This document shows, one piece after another, positions 1,235-57,256 of a stretch of 64,000 bases of DNA. Source of the DNA: Dokdonia sp. PRO95 (lineage in GTDB: Bacteria > Bacteroidota > Bacteroidia > Flavobacteriales > Flavobacteriaceae); contig NZ_CM001837.1 in the NCBI RefSeq assembly GCF_000355805.1, positions 2,717,868 through 2,781,867 on the forward strand. The letters are read 5' to 3'. Both the position numbers and the translations under genes were made by a program. Every line of letters starts with the position of its first letter. Within the stretch, counting starts at the first letter, position 1. The notes beneath the pieces are model-generated. The model did no database searches, was not told the DNA's origin, and saw only the letters and a list, made by a program, of their open reading frames with translations.

Positions 1235-1279
1235 ATGAAATACAATTTTTAATACGCTTACGCGAAAAAGTGATTAACA

Positions 1280-1756
1280 ATGAAATACGCTCGCCTTACA
1301 AAAGAACAACTAGAAGAACTAAAGCCAGAGTTTATAAACTTTCTAGCCACGCAATCTATAACTGGAGAAGAATGGGCAACAATTAAAGAAAAGCAACCTA
1401 AAGTAGCCGAAGAGGAAATTGATGTTTTTTCAGATCTCGTTTGGGAAGGCGTGCTTACTAAAGCACAGTACCTAGAGCACATATCTCCTAACCAGATGCA
1501 TTTATTTTTACTAGGAGAGAATAATATGTCACTTATTGCTGTAAAAATCAATAAGGAAGATATAGACATCACAACTGCTGAGGGCTATGCATGGCTCAAA
1601 GAAAACTTAGGAGATGATGATGTTGTCTTTATGAGTGCAAGCAAAGATTACAGTGCAGATCGTAATGCAGATAAGTTTAAACTTATAAGCGAGGGTGCTG
1701 TGATCACTAGAGGTGATCTTTATAAATGGTTTGCTCGCTTTGTAGAAGTGAAGTAA
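1280..1756 (+). CDS. Conserved flavobacterial protein (DUF6495-like)
   Basis: A 158-residue soluble protein beginning MKYARLTKEQLEELKPEFIN. It has no signal peptide or membrane segment and is acidic. I recognise it as a widespread Bacteroidota family of unknown function, probably DUF6495. The family name is from memory and moderately certain. It sits alone between the ribosomal operon terminator and a convergent helicase gene, and an imperfect copy of the TTTCGCGAAA palindrome (TTACGCGAAA) lies just upstream of its start. Confidence 0.7.
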   Translation: MKYARLTKEQLEELKPEFINFLATQSITGEEWATIKEKQPKVAEEEIDVFSDLVWEGVLTKAQYLEHISPNQMHLFLLGENNMSLIAVKINKEDIDITTAEGYAWLKENLGDDDVVFMSASKDYSADRNADKFKLISEGAVITRGDLYKWFARFVEVK

Positions 1757-1787
1757 TTCTCATAACCTAAGGGTTACAAATAACAAT

Positions 1788-1828
1788 GGATTGTAAAGAC
1801 TAGTTATTAAACGTAGTTTTTACAATCC
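1788..1828. terminator. Hairpin between convergent genes
   Basis: GGATTGTAAA at 1788-1797 pairs with TTTACAATCC at 1819-1828 and is followed by TTTTCTATTTT. It lies between two convergent genes and could terminate both, more clearly the + strand gene. Confidence 0.65.
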
Positions 1829-1850
1829 TTTTCTATTTTAAAATGCTTCT

Positions 1851-3161
1851 CTAGGCGTGTTGTATTCTTAATTTTGCCTTTTTTAGTCGCTTGTTATCAA
1901 GTTTTCTTATCATTTCTTCTGCGATACTTTTGTGTACGGCTACAAATGATTGCAAATTTTTAACCTCTATAGTTCCTAGGTGTGCTCTATCTATATTTCC
2001 TTCTTTAAAAAAGAAACCAGCAATATCACCTTTAGAAATCTTATCCTTACGTCCTCCAGAAAGTTCTAAAGTTCGCCACTGTGATCCATCAGGAATTCCT
2101 TTATCGTGTATGAACTCTTCATCCATTTGTGGCATAAACTCTGGAAGTTTCTCATCTTTCCAGTGTAATACGTATGCTGTACCTTCAGACTGCATACGAG
2201 CTGTACGACCATTACGGTGCGTAAACTCTTCTGCATGAATAGGTAAGTGGTAGTGAAGTATAAATTTTATTTCTGGCACATCAATACCACGGGCTGCAAG
2301 ATCTGTAGCAAGTAGTAATTGGTGTGTACCGTTACGAAACTTAAGTAACGACAGCTCACGCTCTCTTTGTTCCATACCACCATAAAAAGTCCCATGAGCA
2401 ATACCGCGATCACTAAGGTATTCACTTATACGTGCGATAGTTCCTTTAAAATTGCAAAATATAATCCCTGGCTGATCGCCTAGGTGACACAAGGCCTTTA
2501 CAAGCATATCAAGCTTATCCTTTTCTGGCGATACAATTGCTTTTAATTCAAGTTTAGATCCACCTTGATGCAGGTAATCCACTTCTACAGGAGAAGTAAG
2601 ACCTACAAACTTAGGGATGTTTATTCCTTGCGTAGCAGAGGTAAGTACTTTCTTTTCTAAAGCTGGGAGAAAACTAAGTATTTCTGTCATTTCTCCTTCA
2701 AAGCCTACTTCTAGTGATTTGTCAAATTCATCTAAAACTAGCGTTTTAATATGATTTGTAGGAAATGTTTCTCTTCTTAAATGGTCTGCGAGTCTTCCTG
2801 GGGTGCCTATTAAAATGGCTGGGCGATGTTTTATGGCTTGTCTATCTGTATTAAAGCTTTGCCCACCATAAGCTGCATGAATTTTATAACCAGTTCCCAT
2901 ATTGCGAGCTACATTTTCTATTTGGATAGCAAGTTCTCGAGAAGGTACTACTATAAGTAATTGCACTTCTTCACAATTAGGATCAAGAGCCTCTATTACA
3001 GGTAATAAAAAAGCGAGTGTTTTACCAGTACCCGTAGGAGATAGTAATATCACCTCGTTTGCAGATTGTATTGCGAGTTGAGCTGCTTCTTGCATCTCAT
3101 TGAGCGTCTTAATCCCTAGCTTGGCAAGGATTTGTTTTTGCGTTTTTTGGTTACTTGTCAT
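1851..3161 (-). CDS. DEAD-box RNA helicase, DbpA-like, with variant motif II DEFD
   Basis: An ATP-dependent RNA helicase of 436 residues, probably acting on rRNA or mRNA structures. Visible motifs are SPTGTGKT (motif I, about 41-48), PSREL (Ia), TPGR (Ib), DEFD (motif II, about 144-147, in place of DEAD), SAT (III, about 175) and HRNGRTAR (VI, about 315-322). The last 75 residues (KDKISKGDIAGFFFKEGNI onward) resemble the DbpA RNA-binding domain that targets 23S rRNA. An upstream in-frame TTG at 3170 exists, but the ATG at 3161 lies 6 nt after a TATCTTTG box, so 3161 is preferred and the message may be leaderless. Confidence 0.9.
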   Translation of the reverse strand: MTSNQKTQKQILAKLGIKTLNEMQEAAQLAIQSANEVILLSPTGTGKTLAFLLPVIEALDPNCEEVQLLIVVPSRELAIQIENVARNMGTGYKIHAAYGGQSFNTDRQAIKHRPAILIGTPGRLADHLRRETFPTNHIKTLVLDEFDKSLEVGFEGEMTEILSFLPALEKKVLTSATQGINIPKFVGLTSPVEVDYLHQGGSKLELKAIVSPEKDKLDMLVKALCHLGDQPGIIFCNFKGTIARISEYLSDRGIAHGTFYGGMEQRERELSLLKFRNGTHQLLLATDLAARGIDVPEIKFILHYHLPIHAEEFTHRNGRTARMQSEGTAYVLHWKDEKLPEFMPQMDEEFIHDKGIPDGSQWRTLELSGGRKDKISKGDIAGFFFKEGNIDRAHLGTIEVKNLQSFVAVHKSIAEEMIRKLDNKRLKKAKLRIQHA

Positions 3162-3167
3162 AGACTG

Positions 3168-3175
3168 CAAAGATA
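3168..3175 (-). promoter_or_regulatory. TATCTTTG -7 box of the helicase gene
   Basis: TATCTTTG on the minus strand matches TAnnTTTG and ends 6 nt before the ATG at 3161. No clear -33 TTG is visible. This spacing would give a leaderless or nearly leaderless mRNA. Confidence 0.55.
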
Positions 3176-3314
3176 ATTATTCATTCATGAGTTATCATCT
3201 TTTATAGAGTACATGTGTAATTGTTGTTTGTGAATTAAATAAGTTTTTTTAGAATATTTTGGATTGATAACATGTTGGTAATGAGGTTTTATCGATATTG
3301 TTTGTGATGATTTT

Positions 3315-3332
3315 ACGCTTTCGCGAAAGCGC
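3315..3332. repeat. Iterated palindrome, exact copy (intergenic)
   Basis: GCTTTCGCGAAAGC at 3317-3330, extended by one more base pair on each side. It lies about 110 bp upstream of the TonB-dependent receptor gene, in the divergent gap. Confidence 0.9.
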
Positions 3333-6742: not shown

Positions 6743-7390
6743 TTAAACTCCTACGTAATTGTACACTGCAATAAAGTGAGAGGCTGTACCTACCAAGACA
6801 AATACATGAAAAATAGCATGGTTATAAGGTATACGAGAAATACTGTAAAGAATAGCACCTATCGTATATAAAATACCTCCTGTAAATAGCCATTGTACAC
6901 CCGCTGGATCAAGGTTTGCTAGTAATGGTTTGTATGCAAAAACAATAAGCCAACCCATCGCTACATAAAGGATTGTAGAAAGGATATCAAATCGACCTGT
7001 AAAGAAGAGTTTTAATATTGTTCCGAATAAAGCAATAGACCAAGCAATCCCAAAAATCCACCATCCAGTACTTCCTTCTAGAGTTACAAGTGTAAATGGT
7101 GTATATGTCCCTGCTATGAGTACGTAGATAGCCGCATGATCAAAAATCTTTAATCTAGCTCTACGTATAGGTTTTACGGCGCTGTGGTAAGCTGTAGAGG
7201 CAAAATATAACACAGACATACTAACTCCAAAAATGATAAGACTAACGGTTGCTGTGGTTGAGACGCTTTCGCGAAAGCATAAAAAACCCAAACCAATAAT
7301 ACTTGCTACAAAACCAAAACCATGCGTCCAAATGTTGAGTTTTTCTTCAAGTGGGGAATAATCTGGAGTTGGTTCTACAGTGTTTTCCAT
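6743..7390 (-). CDS. trhA: Hemolysin III / TrhA family membrane protein
   Basis: A 215-residue integral membrane protein of the PAQR/hemolysin III family with about seven transmembrane helices. Family hallmarks are EEKLNIWTHGFGF near the N-terminus (conserved H and E), YFASTAYHS with the DHAAIYVLIAGTYTPF segment, and the C-terminal YNHAIFHVFVLVGTASHF. These histidines form the proposed metal site. Its start overlaps the upstream TlpA-like gene by 1 nt (TAATG), so the two are probably co-translated. One exact GCTTTCGCGAAAGC palindrome lies in frame and encodes part of CFRESV, residues 38-43. Confidence 0.9.
   Translation of the reverse strand: MENTVEPTPDYSPLEEKLNIWTHGFGFVASIIGLGFLCFRESVSTTATVSLIIFGVSMSVLYFASTAYHSAVKPIRRARLKIFDHAAIYVLIAGTYTPFTLVTLEGSTGWWIFGIAWSIALFGTILKLFFTGRFDILSTILYVAMGWLIVFAYKPLLANLDPAGVQWLFTGGILYTIGAILYSISRIPYNHAIFHVFVLVGTASHFIAVYNYVGV
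7265..7278. repeat. Iterated palindrome, exact copy inside trhA
   Basis: GCTTTCGCGAAAGC in frame with trhA; on the minus strand this copy is read as FRESV. Confidence 0.9.
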
Positions 7391-9625: not shown

Positions 9626-9639
9626 GCTTTCGCGAAAGG
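9626..9639. repeat. Iterated palindrome, one mismatch (intergenic)
   Basis: GCTTTCGCGAAAGG; the TTTCGCGAAA core is intact. It lies between the toxin-antitoxin pair and the nucleotidyltransferase gene. Confidence 0.8.
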
Positions 9640-14077: not shown

Positions 14078-14097
14078 TACGCTTTCGCGAAAGCGTA
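14078..14097. repeat. Iterated palindrome, full 20-bp form (intergenic)
   Basis: TACGCTTTCGCGAAAGCGTA with a perfect 20-bp dyad, apart from further AT-rich flanks. It lies between the divergent genes clpB and ytxJ, 44 bp before ytxJ. Confidence 0.9.
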
Positions 14098-16047: not shown

Positions 16048-16061
16048 GCTTTCGCGAAAAC
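16048..16061. repeat. Iterated palindrome, one mismatch (intergenic)
   Basis: GCTTTCGCGAAAAC with the TTTCGCGAAA core intact, about 115 bp upstream of the lipoprotein gene. Confidence 0.8.
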
Positions 16062-16992: not shown

Positions 16993-19392
16993 TTAATCTT
17001 TGGTTTTAACAAGTATTACTCCGTTTTTTCCTGCCTGCCCATAGAGTTCAATTGCTTTTTCCTCTTTTACAATAGAAATGCTTTCGATATCATTTGGATT
17101 TAAGTTTTTCATTTGTCCAGAGGTATGCAATTTACCATTGATATAGATAATAGGTTTATCGGAGGAGTCAGATTTCAAAATATCTTCTTCAGGTAATTGT
17201 TCCATTAACTTATTCTGTGATAAACTAGATACAGTCGAGGAAGCTTCATCCAATAGCTTTTGATAAAGAGGAGTATCTTCTTTAATTTGTTTTCCCCATC
17301 TATTATAGAAACTCTTAGACCCTTCAGGGCTAACAACAGAGTAGTAAGTTTCTTCATCGAGTGTTACGTAGCGCATGTCTCTTTGTTGCCTGCTATTTTT
17401 ATAGTTTTCTCTATCGCTTTTTAAATTCTCACGTCGCTCCTTCATTTGCATTTTCATGCTGTCACGGCGTGATAGCATATCTTGTCTCATAGAGTCTACC
17501 TGAGCTCTTCCTTGTAGGCTTCTGCGTTCTTCCATACGAGCTCGCATATCCTGCTTGCGAGCTTCCATGTTTGTACGCATACTGTCTCTGCTATTTATCA
17601 TTGATTTGCGACGTTTTTCCAAGCTGGCTCTCCTGTTGTCATAAGCTTTTCTCTGATCATTCTCCATATTAACATTCCCCATGCCTGTACTGCCGTCAGC
17701 ATTGCGATATATGTAAATGTCGTTGATAGGATTAGAGCTCTTTAAGGTGTAATTCTTGTTATTCCCATTATCATCTTTAAGATTGACTGAAATTTTTTCT
17801 ATTTCTAGATTTCTATTTCTCTTAATGCCACTTACCTTCAGAGTAGCGTTGTGCTTATCTTTCATTACTTTAATAAGTGCATCAATCTCGTTATCCGTTG
17901 TGTTTTTAGTAATGATATAGCTATAAGTTTCTTGAGAATTTAAAACCTTAGGCGCTCTTAGAGTATCTTTTATCTGGATTTTAGGACTTTGGCTTAAAAG
18001 TGTTGTGTCTTTAACCACAACGGGTGGGTTATATGATGCTCTTGGATAATTTCCTTTATTTTCTTCCTCATAGCTGTCCCCATTTTTAATAAGTGCTCTG
18101 TCATATACGGTGCCAAGCAAGTTTAAGAACTCAAGTTTATCTACATCAATGCGAAATGAAGTTCCTTTTTCTCCATTTTCTATAACATTAATACCTTTTT
18201 CATTAAAACTAATTTGATACCCTTCCCAAGTTTTAGAGATATCTTTGGCGCGTTTAAAACGTGTATGGAAAACACGGTCTCCAGCAAACTTAGTTTGAAA
18301 GTCAAAACGTTTTATAATTCCATTTTCGGCTATTCTTCGATTTGAAAAGCGTATTAAGCTCTGCGGAAATCTTTCGGCAACTTCTTTTTCAATATTATCT
18401 AAATCTAGGGCTGTGCTATTTCTTGTAATTGTAAATTCATTGTTGCGTACTGGCTTAATAGAAGGTGTTTCCGCTTTCGCGAAAGCGATATTATCCTCCT
18501 CCACATAATTAGTCACTTCTTTTACATTAAAAGAGTACATAAAGAGCGCAAGCACGGGAATGATAAGTGATAACCTCCAAAGATTGTTTTTGTGGGATTG
18601 TGGTGTATTGATCATAACGATTCGTTTTTTGATAAATGATTGATAAAATTGATTAGTAAGTGCTGGGGCAAATGAGGGGGATGAGACCTGTACCAGCGTG
18701 CGTTGATATTGTTTTGGATTCTTAATTTCTTGTATAGCTTGGTGATCTGCTAGGTATTCTAGATTTTGCTCAAGACTGTTTTTATACATCCAGGCAAAGG
18801 GGTTACACCATTGTATCACAAGCGTTATTTGAGATAAGAGCATATCTAGAGAGTGCCTTTGCTGTGCGTGTACTTTTTCGTGAGCGATAATCATCTCAAG
18901 TTCTTCTGGCGTGTGAAACGCAGGATTGTAAACAATTTTTGAAAAGAAAGAAAACGGACTTATCGCTTTTGTAACTGCTACAAATGTATAGCGCCCTTTT
19001 GTACTGCGACTGCCAGATGCAATGAGCTGTCTTAAGGATATATATTGCGCACAAAGCCTACAGAGCATTATACAGATACCTATTATATATATTATGAAAA
19101 GTACCTGCCACCAGTTTACAGCTTGTTCTACAGGTTGCGATGTTACAGCGATGGGTGCAGTTTTTACGGAGCTTATATCCAGAGAGGTCATCACAAGCGG
19201 TTGCGAGGGTATAATCACCTCAATCTCACGTGTAAATTCTATAAAAGGAAGGGTAATAGCAGCAATGATACCGGCTATAAAGTAATGCCTTTTTGCGGTA
19301 AACAAGGTGTTTTTATAAAGTACGGTTAGGTAGATTACATAGAAGAGCCCGAGTATGGAGGCGCTTTTTGTAAGGAGTATGAGCGTTTCCAT
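16993..19392 (-). CDS. BlaR1-family M56 metallopeptidase with plug-like C-terminus
   Basis: A 799-residue membrane sensor-protease. Three N-terminal helices (about 5-25, 36-52, 95-113), the zinc motif HEKVH (H171-E172-H175) in the cytosolic M56 domain, and a fourth helix (about 288-306, PVLALFMYSF) give the BlaR1 layout. The periplasmic part has two unidentified regions, a charged helical stretch rich in R, M, S and D (about 580-680) and a C-terminal TonB plug-like segment (DIESISIVKEEKAIELYG). In this family the protease inactivates the BlaI repressor; the signal sensed here is unknown. It lies 4 nt after blaI. An exact palindrome encodes AFAKA near residue 304. Confidence 0.88.
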   Translation of the reverse strand: METLILLTKSASILGLFYVIYLTVLYKNTLFTAKRHYFIAGIIAAITLPFIEFTREIEVIIPSQPLVMTSLDISSVKTAPIAVTSQPVEQAVNWWQVLFIIYIIGICIMLCRLCAQYISLRQLIASGSRSTKGRYTFVAVTKAISPFSFFSKIVYNPAFHTPEELEMIIAHEKVHAQQRHSLDMLLSQITLVIQWCNPFAWMYKNSLEQNLEYLADHQAIQEIKNPKQYQRTLVQVSSPSFAPALTNQFYQSFIKKRIVMINTPQSHKNNLWRLSLIIPVLALFMYSFNVKEVTNYVEEDNIAFAKAETPSIKPVRNNEFTITRNSTALDLDNIEKEVAERFPQSLIRFSNRRIAENGIIKRFDFQTKFAGDRVFHTRFKRAKDISKTWEGYQISFNEKGINVIENGEKGTSFRIDVDKLEFLNLLGTVYDRALIKNGDSYEEENKGNYPRASYNPPVVVKDTTLLSQSPKIQIKDTLRAPKVLNSQETYSYIITKNTTDNEIDALIKVMKDKHNATLKVSGIKRNRNLEIEKISVNLKDDNGNNKNYTLKSSNPINDIYIYRNADGSTGMGNVNMENDQRKAYDNRRASLEKRRKSMINSRDSMRTNMEARKQDMRARMEERRSLQGRAQVDSMRQDMLSRRDSMKMQMKERRENLKSDRENYKNSRQQRDMRYVTLDEETYYSVVSPEGSKSFYNRWGKQIKEDTPLYQKLLDEASSTVSSLSQNKLMEQLPEEDILKSDSSDKPIIYINGKLHTSGQMKNLNPNDIESISIVKEEKAIELYGQAGKNGVILVKTKD
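18473..18486. repeat. Iterated palindrome, exact copy inside the blaR1-type gene
   Basis: GCTTTCGCGAAAGC read in frame as AFAKA just after the fourth membrane helix. Confidence 0.9.
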
Positions 19393-19965: not shown

Positions 19966-21243
19966 TTATTGCCCTAGATAGTCTTGTGTCATTTGTACAA
20001 ACGTTTTTACACCTAGAAGCATCCCACTTTCATCTATATAAAAGTCTGGTGTGTGGTGCGGGAACGCCTCTGTGGTGCCTGGAGTTTTACCCCCTAAGAA
20101 AAAATAAAGCCCAGGAACTTCTTTCTGAAAGAATGAAAAGTCTTCTGCACCAGTAATTGCTTTTATCACGTGTACGTTTTCTTTACCAGCTGCCTTCTCT
20201 AGTGAAGGTACCATCTGGCTCGTAAGATTTTCATCATTATATGTAATAGGATACCCTTCAGGTATTGTAATGGTCGCTTCTGTGCGGTAAGCCGCAGCAA
20301 TAGCCGGTACCATTTCCTTCATACGGTTATTAATATAAGTTTGCATATCATAATCTAGTGTACGTAATGTACCTACTATATGTGTTTCTTCTGGTATAAT
20401 ATTACTACGTACGCCCGCATTAATTTTACCTATAGATAATACTGCAGCCTCGTCTGTGAGGGGAATCTCACGAGATATGATGGTTTGTAAGCCATCTATA
20501 ATCTTTACGGCTGCCATAATAGGGTCACGACTTGTCCACGGGGTTGAGCCGTGGCTTTGTTTTCCTTTTATATGTATCTCAAAGCTCTGTGAAGCGGCCA
20601 TAATTCCGCCTGGCTTATAGGCAATAGTATTTACATCTTGCCCAGACCCTATGTGAAGGCCAAAAATGGCATCTACATCTGGGTTTTTAAGCACATTTTC
20701 TTTTACCATAAGTTCTGCACCACCTTCTTCGCCAGGAGGCGCACCTTCCTCGGCTGGTTGAAAGATAAATTTTACGGTTCCTGCAAAGTCATTATTTTTT
20801 GCAAGTATCTCTGCCACGCCCATAAGAATTGCGATGTGTGTATCGTGACCACAAGCGTGCATTACAGGCACGGCCTCACCACGATATTCTCCCATTGCTT
20901 CAGATTTAAACGGTAAGTCTGCACGTTCTTTTACGGGTAATCCATCTATATCTGCTCGTAGTGCGAGTACTTTTCCTTTACGCTTTCCTTCTAGTATGCC
21001 TACAACTCCAGTTTTGGCAACAACGGTTTGTACCTTCATACCTAGGGATTTGAGGTGTGTAGCTATTTTTTCGGCAGTTTTAAACTCTCTGTTTCCTAGT
21101 TCTGGATTTTGATGAAAGTCACGACGCCATTCTATGACCTTAGATTCTATATCATTAATTTGTTGCTCTAGATTGTTTTGCGCTTTCGCGAAAGCGGTAA
21201 AAAGTAACACACTAGAAAATAATAAGGTTGTTGTATACTTCAT
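19966..21243 (-). CDS. Secreted M20D amidohydrolase/carboxypeptidase, paralogue 1
   Basis: A 425-residue zinc amidohydrolase of the M20D group (aminoacylase, hippurate hydrolase, IAA-amino-acid hydrolase type). A signal peptide (1-22, ending AFAKAQ) precedes WRRDFHQNPELGNREFKTAE, the metal motif HACGHDTH, QPAEEGAPPGEEGG with the catalytic glutamate, and the C-terminal AEDFSFF and PHHTPDF. It should release amino acids from N-acyl or dipeptide substrates in the periplasm or outside. It is the last of four tandem peptidase genes. The exact palindrome supplies the end of the signal peptide. Confidence 0.9.
   Translation of the reverse strand: MKYTTTLLFSSVLLFTAFAKAQNNLEQQINDIESKVIEWRRDFHQNPELGNREFKTAEKIATHLKSLGMKVQTVVAKTGVVGILEGKRKGKVLALRADIDGLPVKERADLPFKSEAMGEYRGEAVPVMHACGHDTHIAILMGVAEILAKNNDFAGTVKFIFQPAEEGAPPGEEGGAELMVKENVLKNPDVDAIFGLHIGSGQDVNTIAYKPGGIMAASQSFEIHIKGKQSHGSTPWTSRDPIMAAVKIIDGLQTIISREIPLTDEAAVLSIGKINAGVRSNIIPEETHIVGTLRTLDYDMQTYINNRMKEMVPAIAAAYRTEATITIPEGYPITYNDENLTSQMVPSLEKAAGKENVHVIKAITGAEDFSFFQKEVPGLYFFLGGKTPGTTEAFPHHTPDFYIDESGMLLGVKTFVQMTQDYLGQ
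21182..21195. repeat. Iterated palindrome, exact copy in an M20 signal peptide
   Basis: GCTTTCGCGAAAGC read in frame as AFAKA, ending at the predicted cleavage site of paralogue 1. Confidence 0.9.
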
Positions 21244-21259
21244 TTATGTAATGATATTT

Positions 21260-23089: not shown

Positions 23090-23102
23090 AGGGATCTAAT
23101 TT

Positions 23103-24380
23103 TTATTTACCGTTTAAGTAATCAATACTCATTTGGCTTAGTGCTTTAACGCCTAGTTGAAATCCAGCTTCATCAATCACAAAATCAGGTGTGTGATGAG
23201 GAAAAGCTTCAGTACTGCCAGCGGTCATACCGCCTAAAAAGAAATAGAAGCCAGGTACTTTCTCTTGGAAGAAAGAAAAGTCTTCTCCACCAGTTACCGC
23301 TTTCTGTAGCGACACATTTTCTATACCACCTACTTTTTGTAAGGTAGGGAGCATTTGTGCAGTAAGATCAAGATCATTGTAAGTTACGACAGTCATGTTT
23401 TGCCAGTCTATCGTAGCCTCACCGCCATAAGCCTTTGCAATACCAGCAGCCATTTCATCCATACGGCGTATGATTTTCTCACGCATATCTGGATCCAGTG
23501 TACGTACTGTACCTATCATTTCGGCACTTTCTGGGATGATGTTAAAGCGTGTTCCAGATGTAATCTTACCTACGGTAATTACTGCAGCTTCCTCGGTTAA
23601 TTCACTTTCACGAGAGATAATACTCTGGAAACCGTTGATAATCTGTGCAGATATTAAAATAGGGTCCACTCCAGACCAAGGCTGACTGCCATGAGATTGC
23701 TTTCCTTTTACATTTACTACAAAACGCTCTGTAGCTGCCATTGTTCCACCTGGTTTATATTTTATAGTATTTACAGGAGTAGCACTATTAATGTGTAAAC
23801 CAAAAATAGCATCCACTTTAGGATTATCAAGTACACCTTCTTTTACCATAAGTTTTGCACCGCCTTCTTCACCTGGAGGAGGTCCTTCTTCTGATGGTTG
23901 AAAAATGAATTTTACAGAACCTTTGATTTTGTCTTTGTTTTTTGACAGTACTTCTGCCACACCCATAAGGATAGCAGTGTGTGTATCATGACCACAAGCA
24001 TGCATCACACCAGTTTCTGTTCCTAAAAATGAAGTAACTACCTCAGATTTGAAAGGAAGGTCATTACGTTCTGTAACGGGAAGGGCGTCTATATCTGCTC
24101 TTAAAGCAACCACTTTACCTGGCATGTCTCCTTTAAGTAAGCCTACGACTCCAGTTTTGGCAACTCCTGTTTGTACTTCAATCCCCAAAGATTCGAGGTG
24201 TTTTGCTATTTTTTCGGCAGTTTTGAATTCGCGATTTCCTAGTTCTGGATTTTGATGAAAATCTCTGCGCCATTCTATGACCTTTTCTTCTACAGCGGCA
24301 ATGTCTTTGTCAAAAGAGGTTTGCGCTTTCGCGAAAGCGGTACCAGCAATAAGGGCACTTAGTATTAATACTTTTTTCAT
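23103..24380 (-). CDS. Secreted M20D amidohydrolase/carboxypeptidase, paralogue 2
   Basis: A 425-residue paralogue of the gene at 19966-21243, with the same signal-peptide ending (AFAKAQ), WRRDFHQNPELGNREFKTAE, HACGHDTH, QPSEEGPPPGEEGG, GGEDFSFF and PHHTPDF. The proteins are similar along the whole length but clearly diverged, so this is an old duplication and the two probably differ in substrate. The ATG at 24380 gives a proper signal peptide; the upstream in-frame ATG at 24410 does not. Confidence 0.9.
   Translation of the reverse strand: MKKVLILSALIAGTAFAKAQTSFDKDIAAVEEKVIEWRRDFHQNPELGNREFKTAEKIAKHLESLGIEVQTGVAKTGVVGLLKGDMPGKVVALRADIDALPVTERNDLPFKSEVVTSFLGTETGVMHACGHDTHTAILMGVAEVLSKNKDKIKGSVKFIFQPSEEGPPPGEEGGAKLMVKEGVLDNPKVDAIFGLHINSATPVNTIKYKPGGTMAATERFVVNVKGKQSHGSQPWSGVDPILISAQIINGFQSIISRESELTEEAAVITVGKITSGTRFNIIPESAEMIGTVRTLDPDMREKIIRRMDEMAAGIAKAYGGEATIDWQNMTVVTYNDLDLTAQMLPTLQKVGGIENVSLQKAVTGGEDFSFFQEKVPGFYFFLGGMTAGSTEAFPHHTPDFVIDEAGFQLGVKALSQMSIDYLNGK
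24325..24338. repeat. Iterated palindrome, exact copy in the second M20 signal peptide
   Basis: GCTTTCGCGAAAGC read in frame as AFAKA at the same position as in paralogue 1, so it predates or was copied with the duplication. Confidence 0.9.
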
Positions 24381-24419
24381 AAGGTATATGTTGTGATGAT
24401 TTAAAATCAATATGTATTG

Positions 24420-25869: not shown

Positions 25870-25883
25870 GCTTTCGCGAAAGC
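25870..25883. repeat. Iterated palindrome, exact copy (intergenic)
   Basis: GCTTTCGCGAAAGC directly beside the terminator at 25884 and 65 bp upstream of the M28 gene. Confidence 0.9.
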
Positions 25884-27646: not shown

Positions 27647-27666
27647 TACGCTTTCGCGAAAGCGTA
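27647..27666. repeat. Iterated palindrome, full 20-bp form (intergenic)
   Basis: TACGCTTTCGCGAAAGCGTA between the propeller gene (26 bp away) and the membrane-protein gene (5 bp away). Confidence 0.9.
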
Positions 27667-33215: not shown

Positions 33216-33229
33216 GCTTTCGCGAAAGC
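33216..33229. repeat. Iterated palindrome, exact copy (intergenic)
   Basis: GCTTTCGCGAAAGC in the divergent gap between nth and bcp, 78 bp before bcp. Confidence 0.9.
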
Positions 33230-35846: not shown

Positions 35847-36638
35847 ATGAAAATCACCTTTCTCGGTACTGGCACATCTCAAGGAATTCCTGTAATAGGA
35901 AGTACACATCCCGTGTGCTTAAGTACAGATGCTAGAGATAAAAGATTAAGAGTTTCTGTTCTAATTGAGTGGGAAGGCTATAATTATGTGATAGATTGCG
36001 GTCCAGATTTTAGACAACAAATGCTTAATACGCTTTCGCGAAAGCGTACCACCGCAGGAGATCCTGCACCTTTGCATGGTATATTATTAACGCATGAACA
36101 TGCAGATCACGTTGCTGGACTAGATGATATAAGACCTTTTGTTTTTAGACAAGGTGATATGCCTATTTATGCTCATAAGCGAGTATTGAAAACTCTCGCC
36201 GAACGTTTTGATTATATCTTTACAACAGAAAATAGATACCCAGGAGCTCCAAGCGTTGCTTCAAAAGAGGTAGTAAATGGTGTTCCTATCAAATTAGGAA
36301 ACATCGAAGTGCAGCCTATCGAGGCCTACCACGGATCATTGCAAGTCTTTGGATATCGTTTTCAAAATATAGCGTATCTAACAGATGTAAAAACTATCGC
36401 AGATGAGGAGATTGAAAAATTGCAAGGATTAGATATTCTTGTGTTGAATTGCTTAAGGGAAGAAGCTCATTATACACATTTAAACGTAGAGGAAGCGCTT
36501 GCTCTGGTTGCCAAAATTAAACCTAAACGCACATATCTAACACACATAAGCCATCACCTTGGTTTTCATGCAGAAGCCGAACAAAAATTACCAAAAAATG
36601 TCTTTCTCGCTTACGACGGACTTACTTTAACTACATAA
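35847..36638 (+). CDS. MBL-fold metal-dependent phosphodiesterase, PhnP-like
   Basis: A 263-residue metallo-beta-lactamase-fold hydrolase. MKITFLGTGTSQGIPVIGS and the metal motif THEHADH (H83, H85, D87, H88) followed by GLDDIRPF are typical of the PhnP/phosphodiesterase branch, which cleaves cyclic phosphates; the true substrate here is unknown and no phosphonate genes are near. Further ligands are in EAYHG, YLTDV and THISHHLG. A full 20-bp palindrome lies in frame and encodes NTLSRKRT (residues 61-68), forming a short insertion before the HxHxDH motif. A small membrane-protein gene follows after 3 nt. Confidence 0.88.
   Translation: MKITFLGTGTSQGIPVIGSTHPVCLSTDARDKRLRVSVLIEWEGYNYVIDCGPDFRQQMLNTLSRKRTTAGDPAPLHGILLTHEHADHVAGLDDIRPFVFRQGDMPIYAHKRVLKTLAERFDYIFTTENRYPGAPSVASKEVVNGVPIKLGNIEVQPIEAYHGSLQVFGYRFQNIAYLTDVKTIADEEIEKLQGLDILVLNCLREEAHYTHLNVEEALALVAKIKPKRTYLTHISHHLGFHAEAEQKLPKNVFLAYDGLTLTT
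36029..36048. repeat. Iterated palindrome, full 20-bp form inside the MBL gene
   Basis: TACGCTTTCGCGAAAGCGTA read in frame as TLSRKR, a reading frame different from the AFAKA copies. Confidence 0.92.
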
Positions 36639-38250: not shown

Positions 38251-39503
38251 TAGTTAAGTACTATTTGGTTATTTGCAATAACTCCATAAACTTCCCCTTT
38301 CATTTTTTGATTAAGGAATATGGCGTTATTTGATGTTGATTTGATGTGTTCTTGAGTAAATGTAGCCGTGCCTTTTGTTGTAAATAAGGTAATATCTGCA
38401 GGGCTATTTTCTTGTATTGTGCTACTGGTGCCTATAAATCTACGTCTCCCAGCAGTAAGTAGCGTAACTGCGCGCTTCTCACTCACAATGGTAAGTAACG
38501 CTTTAAATGTAGCTTCTTGGGATATCGCGCCATACATGGCATTATCAAACTCGACGTGCTTGCGCTCAACATCTAGGGGATTATGATCACTGGTCACCAT
38601 ATCGATAGTACCATCTTTTACACCCTCTATCAAGGCATCTACGTGCTCTTGGTTTCTTAGTGGTGGTAAGACTTTATAACGCGTGTCAAAATCATCTATA
38701 ATAGTATCTAGTAGGTACAAGTTATGTATTGCTACACTACAAGTAACGTCTAATCCTTTCGTTTTAGCTTGTTTTATAAGTTCCACACTTGCCTTTGTGG
38801 AAATTGTAGGTATATGAAGGCTTCCTCCAGCATATTCTAAAATGTGTAAGTCTCTTGCTACTTGAAGACTTTCGGCTATAGCGGGAATTCCTTTGAGTCC
38901 TACTCGGGTGCTTATTTCTCCTTCATTTACCATTCCTTTTCCAGCAATTTTCTGCTCTTGAGGAAATGATAAAACAAGTCCGTTGAATCCTTGAGTGTAT
39001 TGCAGTGCAATTTTAAGCAAATTAGGATTTGCGATAGGCTGTTGATAATCACCAAAAGCCACAGCTCCAGCTTGCTGCATATCGTATAATTCTGCTAGGT
39101 CTACGCTTTCACTATTTCGCGTAAGCGCACCTATAGGAAAAAGAGAAGTTGCATGTCCTTCTGCCATTTTTTTTACAAAGGTAACATCAGAGCTTGTGTC
39201 AATAATAGGGTAGGTGTTTGGATTGAGTGCTACTGCTGTAAAGCCACTTGAGGCTGCCACTTGTAATCCGTGATCTATAGTTTCTCGTTCCTCAAATCCG
39301 GGTTGCCCCATACTCACGCTACTATCAAACCAACCTTGTGATATATGGAGATTATCGCGCTCTATAAGCGTCTCTCCTTTTGTATTTTCTAGATGTTCTC
39401 CTATTTCTATAATGAGGCCATCCTTAATTCTAACATCTTTTGTACTACCGTGATGTGGGCTATCACTGTCTACAATTATGGCGTTCTTTATGAGTGCTTT
39501 CAT
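38250..39503 (-). CDS. Dihydroorotase homologue lacking metal ligands
   Basis: A 417-residue amidohydrolase-fold protein closest to dihydroorotase (PGFEERETIDHG, LHIPTISTKASVELI, TSDHNPLDVERK). The HxH that binds zinc in active enzymes (DxHvHlR) is replaced here: GWFDSSVSMGQPG. The CHVST histidine is also lost (IPTIST). Only the late SDH aspartate and one histidine (AIHNL) remain. It is therefore probably a non-catalytic PyrC-like protein, such as a partner of aspartate carbamoyltransferase; that role is inferred. It overlaps the BatA/vWA gene by 4 nt. Confidence 0.82.
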   Translation of the reverse strand: MKALIKNAIIVDSDSPHHGSTKDVRIKDGLIIEIGEHLENTKGETLIERDNLHISQGWFDSSVSMGQPGFEERETIDHGLQVAASSGFTAVALNPNTYPIIDTSSDVTFVKKMAEGHATSLFPIGALTRNSESVDLAELYDMQQAGAVAFGDYQQPIANPNLLKIALQYTQGFNGLVLSFPQEQKIAGKGMVNEGEISTRVGLKGIPAIAESLQVARDLHILEYAGGSLHIPTISTKASVELIKQAKTKGLDVTCSVAIHNLYLLDTIIDDFDTRYKVLPPLRNQEHVDALIEGVKDGTIDMVTSDHNPLDVERKHVEFDNAMYGAISQEATFKALLTIVSEKRAVTLLTAGRRRFIGTSSTIQENSPADITLFTTKGTATFTQEHIKSTSNNAIFLNQKMKGEVYGVIANNQIVLN

Positions 39504-41431
39504 TTATAGAATTTTAAAATCAAGATTTCTAGTACTAGGAATAACAGGGCAAAAATAACAAACCATTTCCAAAGCGATTGGACACTATCTGCTGTTTTGA
39601 ATTCGTCAAAAAGGTCTTCTACAGAGGTGTTATAGTGATCTGTAGCACCGTTGTTTAATGCTGCATACCGCAAAGTGCTTTCACTACGACTGTAATTATA
39701 ACTAACTTGCTGTATTGTGTTATCTGCTAGCTTAATATTATAGATACTTGCTCTAGATGGCGAGTCACTTGTAGTAATTTGCACTTTATTCCCTTTAGAT
39801 TGTTGCAAAGGAATAAGTGTATTTGAGGGATCTGACATGTCTTCTAGACTCAAAATATCATCTTCTTGAAGGGCGACAGATATGTCGTATGTTACGTTCT
39901 TCCCAATAGGCATATATAATCGTGGCAACTGCAAGCTCTGTCGCGACATATTGTAAAATGTAGGGACTATGAGCGGCGAACTTTGGAGATTCGAATTTGC
40001 CACGTCTATACCTCCAGAGATTACAAAGAAATTTGAAGCATAAGAGAGAAAAGGACTTCCATCTTCAAAACGAAGTAATGCATCTCCACCTTGTAATGCA
40101 AAGGATTTTGAAACTGACGGGTATTGAAAATTCTTTATCCTTGCATCAAACACATCTTTATAAACGGGATGGTCATAGTTTATGGTGGTTACTAATCGTT
40201 TGGTAGTTTCACTCTTTGAAATCTCAAAGTTCCCTAAATTTCTTAAAGCACCGTTATAACTAGCGGCATCTGCATTTGAATCTAAAATAATGGTGGTGAT
40301 TCCTCCCGCTTTCGCGAAAGCGTTCAAAGCACCACTAAGAGCTACGCCTATTTCTGAAACTTGATTTACAACAATATAATTAAACTCTGGTATGCTGCTA
40401 TAATCAAGGTTCTTAATGTTTGTACTTTCATACTCAAACTCTGGAGCCGTAAAAATACGTGACAAATAATCTGAGTTTGCACCATTTATTGCAAGCACTT
40501 TAATGGGCTGACTTTTATTAATGTTAAAAAACATGGTGTTATCAAAAGCGAGTAGGGGATCTTCAATTACGATACGCCCTGCGATTTCTTCTTTTGCGTC
40601 TATATCAAAAACAACGGTAGTTCCTAGTTCGCTATCAAAAGACGCCGTACCCTTAGCTAGCAATTGTTCGCCGTTGTATAGAGAAACGGCAGTATTTATA
40701 TCTTTCTTTTCACCTGCTGAAAGTGCTACAGTAAGTACAATACTTCCTGCTTTTCTTTTTGATATGAAAACAGAATCTATACTTACATTGTTTTTTATCA
40801 CTGGCTGGAGCTGCACGTAGTGTTTTTCTACACCATCAGTTTGTAGCTGATACGTCTCACCATTATCCTGAAAATCCGAAATCATAATGAGCCTCTTATC
40901 CTTTGATTGGTCTCTAGAAAATTCTTTCTGTGCTCTGAGTGTTACGGCAGTTTCAGATAACTGTGTTGCTGCATACGGTAGTTGTAGCAGCTCGTTACGC
41001 ATGTTTTTAACAGTGGTGTTTCTATACGTATCCGTATTTGTAATTAAAGTGAAGGTTTGATCCTCGGGAATATGAGTAATGATATCTTGAGTTGCCGTGC
41101 GTAGCAATTGTCCAGAAGGACCTTTTGCTTGCATACTGAACGAGTTATCCAAGTAAATAATAGTTTCCTTTTCTCGCGTGGCACTATCTGATTGTGTAAT
41201 AAATGGTTGAGCAAATGCTAGCACAATTGCAGCAATTGCTGCCATACGAGATAGTAATACGAGCCATTTTTTTATAGAATTACTCTTACGCGTTTGGATA
41301 TTAAGCTTTTGAAGAAAGGCAACGTTTGTAAACGCTTCTGTTTTAAACTTACGCAGTTGGAATAAGTGAACGAGAATAGGGATAAGCAGTAAGAACAGTG
41401 CGTAAAGTAGTTCTGGATGTCTAAACTGCAT
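39500..41431 (-). CDS. BatA-domain/von Willebrand factor A membrane protein
   Basis: A 643-residue membrane protein. The N-terminus MQFRHPELLYALFLLLIPIL and the second helix (about 57-75) make up the BatA (aerotolerance regulator N-terminal) domain, followed by a vWA domain with an intact MIDAS start YLDNSFSMQAKG (DxSxS), a beta-rich middle and a C-terminal helix (about 622-640). Members form the Bat-type complexes with AAA ATPases, but no MoxR ATPase is adjacent here. An exact palindrome encodes AFAKAG near residue 372. Confidence 0.85.
   Translation of the reverse strand: MQFRHPELLYALFLLLIPILVHLFQLRKFKTEAFTNVAFLQKLNIQTRKSNSIKKWLVLLSRMAAIAAIVLAFAQPFITQSDSATREKETIIYLDNSFSMQAKGPSGQLLRTATQDIITHIPEDQTFTLITNTDTYRNTTVKNMRNELLQLPYAATQLSETAVTLRAQKEFSRDQSKDKRLIMISDFQDNGETYQLQTDGVEKHYVQLQPVIKNNVSIDSVFISKRKAGSIVLTVALSAGEKKDINTAVSLYNGEQLLAKGTASFDSELGTTVVFDIDAKEEIAGRIVIEDPLLAFDNTMFFNINKSQPIKVLAINGANSDYLSRIFTAPEFEYESTNIKNLDYSSIPEFNYIVVNQVSEIGVALSGALNAFAKAGGITTIILDSNADAASYNGALRNLGNFEISKSETTKRLVTTINYDHPVYKDVFDARIKNFQYPSVSKSFALQGGDALLRFEDGSPFLSYASNFFVISGGIDVANSNLQSSPLIVPTFYNMSRQSLQLPRLYMPIGKNVTYDISVALQEDDILSLEDMSDPSNTLIPLQQSKGNKVQITTSDSPSRASIYNIKLADNTIQQVSYNYSRSESTLRYAALNNGATDHYNTSVEDLFDEFKTADSVQSLWKWFVIFALLFLVLEILILKFYK
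40308..40321. repeat. Iterated palindrome, exact copy inside the BatA/vWA gene
   Basis: GCTTTCGCGAAAGC read in frame as AFAKA within LNAFAKAGGI. Confidence 0.9.
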
Positions 41432-43550: not shown

Positions 43551-43564
43551 GCTTTCGCGAAAGC
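43551..43564. repeat. Iterated palindrome, exact copy (intergenic)
   Basis: GCTTTCGCGAAAGC just 9 bp after the ABC ATPase stop region and 36 bp before the TIGR02757 start. Confidence 0.9.
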
Positions 43565-49016: not shown

Positions 49017-49030
49017 GCTTTCGCGAAAGC
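49017..49030. repeat. Iterated palindrome, exact copy at the helicase promoter
   Basis: GCTTTCGCGAAAGC occupies the place where a -33 element would be for the -7 box at 49043. Confidence 0.9.
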
Positions 49031-52079: not shown

Positions 52080-52092
52080 TTTCGCGAAAGCG
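52080..52092. repeat. Iterated palindrome, half-degenerate copy
   Basis: TTTCGCGAAAGCG with intact core, in the gap between the CAP lipoprotein gene and the dipeptidase gene. Confidence 0.8.
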
Positions 52093-54081: not shown

Positions 54082-54093
54082 GCTTTCGCGAAA
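54082..54093. repeat. Iterated palindrome, half-degenerate copy (intergenic)
   Basis: GCTTTCGCGAAA between the basic protein gene and the DUF1223 gene, core intact. Confidence 0.8.
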
Positions 54094-55176: not shown

Positions 55177-55223
55177 AATCCATACAATTACTTGTTTATT
55201 TAATTAAGCCAAACCAATTACAA

Positions 55224-55255: not shown

Positions 55256-55383
55256 ATCTTTTTACAGCGAGAAGATACCGTACTCGTTAAACTTCTCTAA
55301 AGACAACTCTTAAATACTATTAAAGTACATCTTAAGCATATGATCTCCCTCTAATTTTACAACAACAAAAAAAATTATTACCA

Positions 55384-56781
55384 ATGGAAAGAGAAATAAA
55401 AGGAGGATTTAGAACCATAAATCCTCATACCGAACAATCAATTAAGGAGTATACATATTTTACAGATGATCAGGTTACTGAAGCGATAGACAACTGTCAC
55501 GAGGCTTTTAATGACTGGAAAATGCAATCGCTTGACGATAGAGCCACTGTAATAAAGAATATAGGAGAGCAACTAAAAAATTATAAAGATCAACTTGTAC
55601 AACTCATGACCGATGAGATGGGTAAAACCATTGAGCAAGGTAAAAGTGAGATTGATCTTTGTATTGCTATCACAGAATACACTGCAAAAAATGGTGTAAA
55701 AGAATTACAACCCATAGAACGAACACTAATGGATGGCGGAAAAGGTATTATATCATATGCTCCAGAAGGAGTTATATATAGTATCCAGCCGTGGAATTTC
55801 CCTACATACCAACCACTTAGAGTTGCCATTGCCAACTTACTAGCGGGTAACGGGATATTACTAAAACACGCTCAGAATGTAACGGGAAGCGCATTATTAA
55901 TAGAAGAGCTCTTACTTAAGGCCGGTGTGCCAGAAGGACTTTTTAAGGTGCTTGTGATAGATCACGCACAGTCAGATAAGGTGATAAGCAATGATAAAGT
56001 ACGCGGAGTGACATTTACAGGAAGTTCTGCTGGAGGAAAAATCATAGCAAAAACTGCGGGAGCATCTATTAAGAAGACAGTGTTAGAGCTGGGAAGTAAT
56101 GATGCATACATCGTACTTGATGATGCAGATGTAGAAGAAGCCGTAAAAGCTTGTGTACAAGGTAGAATCATAAACAATGGTGAGACTTGTATTGCTGCAA
56201 AACGTTTTATCGTAGTAGATAAAGTATATGATGCATTTAAGGAAGGCTTTGTACAAGGAATGAAAGATGTAGTCATGGGAGATCCTAATAAGGATGGAAC
56301 ACAACTAGGACCAATTGCTCGTAAAGATTTACAGGAGTTGCTAAGCGACCAAGTAAAAGAAAGTGTAGAAAAAGGAGCAAAGATTGAAACTGGTGGAGAG
56401 ATACTAGATGGTAGCGGTTATTACTACCCATCTACGGTACTAAGTAACGTAGAGCCTGGACAACCAGCTTATGATGACGAACTCTTTGGCCCAGTGGCTT
56501 CTTTAATTAGGGCAAAGGATAATGAAGATGCAATGCGCATAGCAAATGATAGCCGTTTTGGACTAGGAGGTGGAATTTTCTCTAAGGATGAAGAAGGAGC
56601 TATCAAACTTGCACAAGAGCACTTTGATACGGGAATGATATTCATTAATTCGTACGGACTTGCACAACCTATGATGCCTTTTGGAGGAGTAAAAGACTCT
56701 GGATATGGTAGAGAGCACGGAGGATTCGGGATTAAGGAATTTGTAAATGCTAAGTCAGTACTTTTAGTAGAATCTGAATAA
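55384..56781 (+). CDS. NAD(P)-dependent aldehyde dehydrogenase, succinate-semialdehyde type
   Basis: A 465-residue aldehyde dehydrogenase. The NAD-binding part has QPWNFPTYQPLRVAIANLLA, GVTFTGSSAGGK and the general base E235 in VLELGSND; the nucleophile is C269 in INNGETCIAAKRF. LFGPVAS, FGGVKDSGYGREHG and the end GIKEFVNAKSVL are the family tail. The shorter length and QPWNFP align best with the succinate-semialdehyde/GABA-type branch; the exact aldehyde is inferred. The next gene begins 1 nt after its stop. Confidence 0.9.
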   Translation: MEREIKGGFRTINPHTEQSIKEYTYFTDDQVTEAIDNCHEAFNDWKMQSLDDRATVIKNIGEQLKNYKDQLVQLMTDEMGKTIEQGKSEIDLCIAITEYTAKNGVKELQPIERTLMDGGKGIISYAPEGVIYSIQPWNFPTYQPLRVAIANLLAGNGILLKHAQNVTGSALLIEELLLKAGVPEGLFKVLVIDHAQSDKVISNDKVRGVTFTGSSAGGKIIAKTAGASIKKTVLELGSNDAYIVLDDADVEEAVKACVQGRIINNGETCIAAKRFIVVDKVYDAFKEGFVQGMKDVVMGDPNKDGTQLGPIARKDLQELLSDQVKESVEKGAKIETGGEILDGSGYYYPSTVLSNVEPGQPAYDDELFGPVASLIRAKDNEDAMRIANDSRFGLGGGIFSKDEEGAIKLAQEHFDTGMIFINSYGLAQPMMPFGGVKDSGYGREHGGFGIKEFVNAKSVLLVESE

Positions 56782-56782
56782 T

Positions 56783-57226
56783 ATGAGTTATCAGTCATCT
56801 TTCATGAAGCAGGCCATTGCGCTAGCTCGAGAAGGTAAAGATACAGACGGTGGCGGCGTTTTTGGCGCCGTCATTGTTCGTTCTGGGCAGGTCATTGCGG
56901 CTTGTCATAATCTCGTGGGAGGTTCGCAAGACCCTACGCAGCACGCAGAGTTACGTTGTATTCAGCTAGCATGTAAAGCGCTGGGTACAAAAGATTTTTC
57001 AGATTGCGATTTGTATACGAGTTGTGTGCCTTGCATAATGTGTTTAGGCGCAGCGAGATGGGCTCGATTTCAGCATATCTATTACGGAGCTTCTGCTGCC
57101 ATGGCAAAAGATGCTGGCTTTATCTATAGCGATATGTTTTATGCTAGAGATATAGAGGCACGTAATCAAGAGTTTAACATGCAACAGTTTCTTGGAGAAG
57201 AGGCAGCTGCGGTGTGGAACGAGTGA
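56783..57226 (+). CDS. Nucleoside/guanine deaminase
   Basis: A 147-residue zinc deaminase of the CDA fold. H54 and E56 in the HAEL motif and C84 and C87 in SCVPCIMC are the zinc-site residues, with GGVFGAVIVRSGQVIA upstream. It resembles guanine deaminase (GuaD) and is shorter than TadA. It is coupled to the aldehyde dehydrogenase gene by a 1-nt gap. Confidence 0.88.
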   Translation: MSYQSSFMKQAIALAREGKDTDGGGVFGAVIVRSGQVIAACHNLVGGSQDPTQHAELRCIQLACKALGTKDFSDCDLYTSCVPCIMCLGAARWARFQHIYYGASAAMAKDAGFIYSDMFYARDIEARNQEFNMQQFLGEEAAAVWNE

Positions 57227-57240
57227 TTATGGAGTTACGA

Positions 57241-57256
57241 TTTCGCGAAAGCGTAC
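57241..57256. repeat. Iterated palindrome, half-degenerate copy
   Basis: TTTCGCGAAAGCGTAC with intact core, 15 bp after the deaminase stop. Confidence 0.8.

What the first reader, a model, noticed from the sequence alone, without database searches (positions are those of the whole stretch)
1258..57256. A highly iterated palindrome, GCTTTCGCGAAAGC, spread through the whole region
I count 13 exact copies (starting at 3317, 7265, 14081, 18473, 21182, 24325, 25870, 27650, 33216, 36032, 40308, 43551, 49017) and six more with the core TTTCGCGAAA intact (9626, 16048, 30891, 52080, 54082, 57241). Three copies reach the full 20-bp form TACGCTTTCGCGAAAGCGTA. A given 14-mer would not be expected even once in 64 kb by chance. 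The spacing is irregular and the copies occur between genes and inside them, so it is not a promoter or terminator element of one operon. It resembles REP-like or HIP1-like iterated palindromes and could be a recognition site for a DNA-binding, segregation, restriction or repeat-spreading (RAYT) protein.
Basis: partly seen in the sequence, partly recalled or inferred. Interest (0 to 1): 0.78.

Follow-up and report, generated by a model that had tools for sequence, protein, structure and literature searches.

The report
Evenly spaced palindrome across Dokdonia chromosomes
Two groups of marine bacteria carry the same exact palindromic DNA word hundreds of times, roughly every three to four thousand letters and even inside genes, and it looks like a maintained chromosome-wide landmark whose reader protein is still unknown.

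Summary
In detail: 13 exact GCTTTCGCGAAAGC and 19 TTTCGCGAAA lie in the window. The genome (size of Dokdonia sp. PRO95) has 794 copies. All 18 Dokdonia genomes searched, and all 23 of a second genus (Nonlabens by a contig match), have 288-905; the other genomes searched have 0-6, except 17 on three contigs of one.

It is neither REP-like nor chance. Sites are evenly spaced (mean 3.1 kb, CV 0.47, below all 3 x 2000 null draws), enriched between genes without promoter or terminator bias, and conserved where orthologues align while flanks diverge. Missing sites often have a substitute nearby (34 of 56 within 1 kb, few independent events). UvrA carries the peptide that the word spells. C-poor shoulders reach 26 bp from the centre, so the element is about 52 bp. 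No cytosine-5 or PF01555 methyltransferase is obligatory. Some viral contigs carry it; three named flavobacterial phages do not.

Best reading: a landmark read by an unknown dimeric protein, probably for chromosome organisation.

The parts
3317..3330 (.). exact 14-mer, intergenic (divergent)
7265..7278 (.). exact 14-mer inside a called minus-strand gene (6743-7390); site also present in the three congeners that align there
9628..9637 (.). 10-bp core, right arm altered (GG), intergenic; core kept in G395, mutated in G400 and G410
14081..14094 (.). exact 14-mer, full 20-bp form, intergenic divergent; present in all four congeners that align there
16050..16059 (.). 10-bp core with one altered arm, intergenic; mutated in G400
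18473..18486 (.). exact 14-mer inside the M56-peptidase gene 16993-19392
21182..21195 (.). exact 14-mer near the 5' end of an M20-peptidase gene (19966-21243)
24325..24338 (.). exact 14-mer near the 5' end of an M20-peptidase gene (23103-24380 as called); present in all six congeners aligned
25870..25883 (.). exact 14-mer, intergenic (tandem); present in all six congeners aligned
27650..27663 (.). exact 14-mer, full 20-bp form, intergenic (tandem); present in the five congeners that align there
30891..30900 (.). core inside uvrA (28557-31352), encodes Ala-Phe-Ala-Lys; one arm altered; three relatives keep the peptide without the DNA site
33216..33229 (.). exact 14-mer, intergenic divergent; absent in G395/G410
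36032..36045 (.). exact 14-mer, full 20-bp form, inside gene 35847-36638; core kept in all 11 congeners that align there
40308..40321 (.). exact 14-mer inside the BatA-domain gene 39500-41431; present in the five congeners that align there
43551..43564 (.). exact 14-mer, intergenic (tandem); mutated in G398; in G395/G410 a site 684 bp away instead
49017..49030 (.). exact 14-mer, intergenic (tandem); mutated in G398
52080..52089 (.). one-sided composite core (left arm CAT), intergenic; one-sided form kept in G398 and G400
54084..54093 (.). one-sided core (right arm ATTT), intergenic divergent; kept in G400
57241..57250 (.). core with one arm altered by one base (ACGA), intergenic convergent; full 14-mer in G398 and G400

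Best explanation
The element is a chromosome-wide DNA landmark, not a mobile repeat. One unit is a 10-bp nearly invariant core (TTTCGCGAAA) extended by symmetrical arms (consensus TTACGC...GCGTAA) and by a C-poor, G/T-rich shoulder of about 16 nt on the 5' side of each strand: about 52 bp with dyad symmetry (shown). Inference: a dedicated homodimeric DNA-binding protein reads it, and function needs one site within a few kilobases of most points. So sites are kept about every 3 kb, put between genes where possible, tolerated inside genes mostly in the frame that spells Ala-Phe-Ala-Lys-Ala, and often replaced by a nearby site when lost. Most likely role (inferred, not shown): chromosome organisation, for example a nucleoid-structuring or loop-anchoring protein. 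The reader protein is not identified.
For: Copies in 18 of 18 Dokdonia and 23 of 23 genomes of the second genus, almost none in the others searched. In 464 kb sampled: 135 cores, 112 exact 14-mers, only 5 one-mismatch relatives of the 14-mer. Even spacing: CV 0.47 against null minima 0.63-0.76; variance/mean of counts per 20 kb 0.23 and no trend with distance from a putative origin. 73 intergenic sites against 15.8 expected, shared among tandem, convergent and divergent gaps in proportion to their length. Genic frame bias 38 of 60, p 3e-6. In pairs of congeners at 72-79% identity, positions 1-7 from the centre are 87-93% identical and positions 9-30 57-75%. Turnover with substitution: a missing site has another at a median of 795 bp, against 2543 bp to the nearest own neighbour, with alternative sites in the map. 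UvrA peptide and 'ghosts'. Shoulders in genic, intergenic and second-genus sites, without cross-pairing beyond position 9.
Against: No reader protein was found and no binding was tested. Even spacing follows from any function that needs coverage (repair, recombination, uptake), so it does not single out architecture. Strand-asymmetric shoulders are not what a simple nucleoid dimer needs. Gaps of 12-30 kb without an exact 14-mer exist, so coverage is not absolute. 22 of 56 missing positions have no substitute within 1.5 kb, the 56 are ordered pairs from few events, and G401 has two sites about 530-545 bp apart. In the second genus the CV of 14-mer intervals alone is not below the null (0.92; 1224 of 5000 draws as low), although intervals under 1 kb are rare (5 against 18.6).
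Confidence: 0.42

Rival explanations
1. Two-way recombination/repair landmark that works like Chi: a DSB-processing helicase-nuclease (or another repair machine) recognises the palindrome from either side, and the G/T-rich 5' shoulder becomes the 3' single strand on which RecA loads.
For: Density (1 core per 3.4 kb in the sample, one 14-mer per 4.2 kb genome-wide) resembles E. coli Chi (1008 in about 4.64 Mb, table passage of PMC1939737). The G/T-rich strand runs 5' into the site on both sides. Coverage-type spacing.
Against: Known Chi sites are 5-8 nt and not palindromic (recalled); a recognition word of 14 bp or more would be unprecedented. RecBCD/AddAB were not examined here.
Confidence: 0.2
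2. Self-recognition tag for DNA uptake (works like DUS/USS), kept by biased uptake.
For: Genus-limited dialect, even spacing, genic and intergenic copies, few copies in other genomes. Even spacing was claimed for uptake sequences (Karlin, cited in a passage of PMC1939737).
Against: Known uptake words are not palindromes (PMC1939737). One-mismatch relatives are very rare here (5 to 112). Viral contigs carry it, which uptake does not explain simply.
Confidence: 0.12
3. HIP1-like word made or kept by a DNA methyltransferase or methyl-directed mismatch repair.
For: Highly iterated palindrome with CGCG core; in cyanobacteria every HIP genome has a methyltransferase predicted to fit (PMC4390886, first part of the Discussion).
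Against: G401, G410, G411 and G513 carry 563-905 copies and have no match to PF00145 or PF01555 at E 0.001 (G401 and G513 are single contigs). The word is about twice as long as HIP1 and has shoulders. Dam-type PF02086 and others not tested.
Confidence: 0.11
4. Transcription terminator or RNA hairpin.
For: The palindrome could fold in RNA; several intergenic sites lie within 20 bp of a called stop codon (not tested against a null).
Against: Convergent, tandem and divergent gaps are used in proportion to their length; 60 of 133 sites are inside genes. The 3' side is A-rich and G-poor, not U-rich, and the flanks show no pairing beyond composition from position 10 outward.
Confidence: 0.03
5. REP-like mobile palindrome spread by a RAYT transposase.
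For: High copy number and intergenic preference.
Against: Positions largely conserved among congeners, no homology beyond the arms, about 45% of sites in genes, loss often by point changes. RAYT gene not searched.
Confidence: 0.02

Closest known systems
HIP1 and alternate HIPs of cyanobacteria (Elhai 2015, PMC4390886)
   Same: Short palindrome iterated genome-wide, clade-limited
   Different: Here 14-22 bp plus C-poor shoulders (HIP1 8 bp), 1 per 3-4 kb (HIPs 1000-2000 per Mb), no obligatory PF00145/PF01555 methyltransferase, Bacteroidota
DNA uptake sequences (DUS/USS)
   Same: Hundreds of copies, even spacing, genic and intergenic, genus-specific dialect
   Different: Palindromic; few near-miss copies; carried by some viral contigs; uptake not tested
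Chi recombination sites
   Same: Comparable density; G/T-rich strand entering the site
   Different: Palindromic, at least 14 bp against 5-8 nt (recalled), so no orientation
parS / Noc box / matS type nucleoid sites (motifs recalled)
   Same: Palindrome of 13-16 bp suited to a dimeric protein
   Different: About 800 copies spread evenly over the whole chromosome, not a domain; reader unknown; TTTC offset by one base per half from parS
REP/BIME with RAYT (features recalled)
   Same: Abundant palindromes
   Different: No longer repeat unit, not extragenic only, positions largely conserved

Membership tests
HIP (highly iterated palindrome) | Palindrome far over-represented genome-wide | tested here: met
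   794 copies, reversed control 0
HIP (highly iterated palindrome) | Cognate methyltransferase present in every genome with the word | tested here: inconclusive
   PF00145 and PF01555 both without a match in 4 of 13 motif genomes; other families not tested
HIP (highly iterated palindrome) | Word of up to about 8 nt at roughly one per kb | tested here: not met
   14-22 bp, one per 3.1-4.2 kb
DUS/USS | Even spacing, genic and intergenic | tested here: met
DUS/USS | Non-palindromic word | tested here: not met
   perfect palindrome
DUS/USS | Promotes uptake of DNA | not testable with these tools
   needs a transformation assay
Chi | Short oriented (non-palindromic) word | tested here: not met
   palindrome of at least 14 bp
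Chi | Acts on RecBCD/AddAB | not testable with these tools
   biochemistry
parS/Noc/matS | Domain-limited distribution (origin, terminus) | tested here: not met
   flat density in 21 own stretches (Spearman 0.12, p 0.62, origin placed by eye)
parS/Noc/matS | Cognate ParB/Noc/MatP-type protein | not tested
REP/RAYT | Extragenic copies of a repeat longer than the palindrome | tested here: not met
   60 of 133 in genes; conservation ends at about 8 bp from the centre
REP/RAYT | RAYT (PF01797) gene | not tested
   no search spent on it
Intrinsic terminator | Hairpin plus U-run after genes | tested here: not met
   3' side A-rich and G-poor, no context bias

The most novel reading that the evidence does not exclude
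A previously unrecognised kind of bacterial chromosomal element: a quasi-regular ruler of 52-bp symmetrical sites (palindrome plus strand-asymmetric C-poor shoulders), one about every 3 kb, kept by selection on spacing strong enough to rewrite protein sequences, shared by Dokdonia and Nonlabens and carried by transposable phages that presumably live in their chromosomes, read by an undiscovered dedicated protein that organises or surveys the whole chromosome.
Probability: 0.35. Interest if true: 0.9.

Novelty: new variant of a known kind. Interest (0 to 1): 0.74.

Why it matters
Genome-wide iterated words such as HIP1 remain poorly understood. This one is long and exact, with measurable even spacing, visible turnover and a clean phyletic boundary, and it occurs in cultured marine bacteria with complete genomes and public PacBio reads. 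Finding its reader would make the question of why a bacterial chromosome needs a site every few kilobases directly testable.

Tried and rejected
Chance and composition: rejected by shuffles and by the reversed control. Promoter or terminator element: no context bias. Hairpin or cruciform: no flank co-pairing beyond composition from position 10 outward in 176 Dokdonia sites (some of them orthologues of one another) and 22 second-genus sites; positions 8 and 9 show a weak excess in Dokdonia (z 2.0 and 2.4). Obligatory C5 or PF01555 methyltransferase: no match in 4 of 13 motif genomes. G459 as a third motif genus: its 17 copies lie on three contigs, 12 of them within 38 kb of C6, probably contaminant contigs (inference). 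Clusters in G130 and G422: the seven sites in the three stretches whose genes were scanned (L275, L276, L279) lie in or beside efflux genes, probably transferred DNA; no candidate reader among the ten proteins scanned. Origin-terminus trend: none. Literature: the listings show no title or abstract that reports this motif in flavobacteria; most listed papers were not opened, and only openly licensed papers are held, so it may be in print elsewhere. Seen: PMC4390886 abstract, outline, first of three parts of the Discussion, and passages; PMC1939737 passages; PMC13151707 part 1 of 2 of the text with its table; PMC8565304 passages (LexA-like motifs GGA-N5-TCC and CTAA-N5-TTAG, not this word); PMC8034619 passages (words around TTTCGCGAAA listed as absent from the human genome; unrelated). 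All other papers: search listing only.
Full report
WHAT IS THERE. The window holds 13 exact GCTTTCGCGAAAGC and 19 TTTCGCGAAA; dinucleotide shuffles give on average 0 and 0.06. The window lies in a single-contig genome of 3,305,093 bases with 794 copies of the 14-mer and 0 of the reversed control. The size equals that listed for Dokdonia sp. PRO95, and two relatives equal Dokdonia sp. 4H-3-7-5 and Dokd-P16 (table in PMC13151707; sizes). A rhodopsin nearly identical to solved chains named sodium pumping rhodopsin fits this (that this protein, KR2, comes from Dokdonia eikasta is recalled).

WHERE IT OCCURS. 18 of 18 genomes of the genus, the own included, carry 369-905 copies. A second genus in the family carries 288-857 in 23 of 23 genomes; I take it to be Nonlabens, because contig 30 of G420 has the number and length (44,101) of the named contig NZ_CANLXZ010000030.1, uncultured Nonlabens. 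Of 395 genomes drawn from the phylum, 22 including the own have any copy, at most 6 apart from the own; the reversed control has a single hit in 14 of the 395, so single copies are near chance (the 14 counted by hand). Of 118 relatives, 27 have a match: 18 Dokdonia, G420, G459 with 17, and seven with 1-6. The 17 copies of G459 lie on three contigs, 12 of them within 38 kb, probably contamination. One Leeuwenhoekiella locus of 22.8 kb has none. UvrA of the window is 82% identical to that of Leeuwenhoekiella and 74-76% to the 22 full-length Nonlabens matches, which suggests that the two motif genera are not each other's nearest relatives; no tree was built.

ANATOMY. In 464 kb of own DNA (window plus 20 stretches) there are 135 cores and 112 exact 14-mers, but only 5 one-mismatch relatives of the 14-mer. 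The symmetrised consensus is TTACGCTTTCG|CGAAAGCGTAA. Outside the arms the 5' side of each strand is depleted of C: positions 11-26 have C 123 and G 560 of 2336 bases at intergenic sites, and C 162 and G 516 of 1920 at genic sites, against 16% and 19% C in the background. Nonlabens shows the same shoulders with a different preference at positions 9 and 10 (22 sites). From position 10 outward the flanks do not pair with each other more than composition predicts; positions 8 and 9 show a weak excess. So the shoulders are a per-side requirement, not a stem. 23 of the 135 cores have at least one altered arm, often AT(N)TGA. The form GCTTTCGCGAAAATNTGA is frequent only in G000 and G398 of eight genomes searched (36 and 35; G395 1, G401 5, four others 0).

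PLACEMENT. Of 135 cores, two at stretch ends were set aside; of the other 133, 73 are intergenic (15.8 expected) and 60 genic (118.3 expected). Intergenic sites fall 45 tandem, 8 convergent, 20 divergent, in proportion to the length of such gaps. In genes the frame GCT TTC GCG AAA GC (Ala-Phe-Ala-Lys-Ala) holds 38 of 60. Genes were called with my own simple ORF caller, so starts are approximate.

SPACING. 114 intervals have mean 3110 and CV 0.47; three nulls (uniform; matched for the numbers of genic and intergenic sites; at most one site per intergenic gap) gave minima 0.71, 0.76 and 0.63 in 2000 draws each. Counts per 20 kb have variance/mean 0.23 and do not follow distance from a putative origin (the origin was placed at about 1.1 Mb by eye from the GC skew of the stretches). 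For exact 14-mers alone, in the first 94-100 listed copies of three genomes, intervals under 1 kb are rare (G000 2, G395 4, G504 5, against 21, 23 and 19 expected); the CV is 0.67, 0.74 and 0.92, and in the Nonlabens genome G504 it is not below the null (1224 of 5000 draws as low) because of four gaps over 12 kb. The four gaps that I opened, two in G504 and two in G395, each contain ORFs of about 1500-5000 residues; one of them has two cores that are not exact 14-mers.

EVOLUTION. I aligned the window with 61-71 kb from five congeners and 17 kb of a sixth. In ordered pairs among the own genome and the five (not independent, and counted only where an alignment spans the site), 203 comparisons in genome pairs at 72-79% identity show 87-93% identity at positions 1-7, 81% at 8 and 57-75% at 9-30; 109 comparisons in pairs at 88-91% show 96-100% at 1-8 and 82-96% at 9-30. 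In the distant pairs 150 of 184 exact 14-mers stay exact (summed by hand). Missing sites are often substituted: for 56 missing positions, counted over ordered pairs and coming from few independent events, the nearest site in the other genome is at a median of 795 bp, about the same as for random positions (858), against 2543 bp to the nearest own neighbour; 34 of 56 are within 1 kb and 22 are beyond 1.5 kb. The map shows alternatives, such as 42873 in G395/G410 instead of 43557, and 32425 in place of 30895 and 33222; it also shows an extra site in G401 about 530 bp from a shared one, against the rule. In UvrA, 11 of 15 Dokdonia genomes have the core at one codon position; three of the four without it (G395, G410, G401) still encode Ala-Phe-Ala-Lys, the fourth (G403) does not; seven Nonlabens and seven other flavobacteria have no Ala-Phe-Ala-Lys there (Leeuwenhoekiella has Ala-Phe-Glu-Asp). 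I read this as the DNA word having changed the protein, with peptide ghosts after the word was lost.

MOBILE DNA. I looked at 12 of the 30, chosen mostly because they had several copies: 47 cores in about 237 kb held, 35 distinct contexts, 76 of 94 flanks with at most 2 C in 16. Because of that choice the density is biased upward, and several contigs share sites. Phage proteins were checked in three contigs: 3300039191_000362 gave terminase, portal, baseplate hub and a transposase, 3300036669_000050 a tape-measure protein, and 2617271332_000001 no named function. Hosts are inferred from the motif only; that the first is Mu-like is inferred from its relative. The nearest named relative by terminase, Winogradskyella phage Peternella_1 (56% identity), has 0 copies, and two isolated Nonlabens phages have 0 in about 35 kb each. 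So the word is not needed by every phage of a motif-bearing host.

MECHANISM. Shown: a sequence-specific, symmetrical, evenly spaced, conserved and partly replaceable DNA element. Inferred: a dimeric protein reads it and the cell needs coverage, not particular positions. Architecture is my first choice. A two-way Chi-like role is second, because the G/T-rich strand enters the site 5' to 3' on both sides. Uptake and methylation models are weaker. Neither a cytosine-5 (PF00145) nor a PF01555 methyltransferase is shared by all: of 13 motif genomes, PF00145 has no match in 6, and G401, G410, G411 and G513 have a match to neither; 13 motif-free genomes of the family served as comparison and also vary. 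The reader protein remains unknown, and this is the main gap.

NOVELTY. It works most like a highly iterated palindrome with the spacing of an uptake sequence, but fails defining features of each (see the membership test). I call it a new variant of a known kind, with a real chance that it is a new kind of element.

Noticed in passing
own genome and G398, 36 and 35 places: The one-sided composite GCTTTCGCGAAAATNTGA is numerous only in this subclade and seems to keep one orientation over long runs (9 of 10 on + from 0 to 0.72 Mb in G000; 9 of 9 on + from 0.1 to 0.85 Mb in G398), without a simple match to GC skew.
   Followed up: partly
IMGVR 3300040781_000495 and 3300040769_000041 (L254, L352, L355, L197, L236): Viral contigs of 45-47% G+C carry the palindrome too, with less C-poor flanks: perhaps a further host group that uses the word.
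   Followed up: no
G130:C1:306000-338000 (L279, L280) and G422:C18:75000-182000 (L275-L278): In genomes with few copies, the sites cluster; where genes were scanned (L275, L276, L279) they lie in or beside efflux genes (RND pump, outer-membrane efflux; in L279 also multicopper oxidase and heavy-metal P-type ATPase), probably transferred from a motif-bearing relative.
   Followed up: partly
L356, L357 (Nonlabens phages P12024S and P12024L): Not only the motif but every TCGCGA is absent from both phage records (35.7 and 35.0 kb read).
   Followed up: no
L288, L289 (G395:C1:287000-321000): Two neighbouring called ORFs of about 4400 and 5050 residues, each in a 16.7-kb stretch without a core; the two cores bounding the first stretch have identical 48-bp surroundings.
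   Followed up: no
window 19966-25805: Four adjacent genes for M20, S15, M20 and M28 peptidases.
   Followed up: no
genus g2 (same family, unnamed): Six of its genomes hold 2-4 scattered copies of the 14-mer, while the reversed control never exceeds 1 in any of the 395 genomes; possibly an ancestral small use of the word.
   Followed up: no
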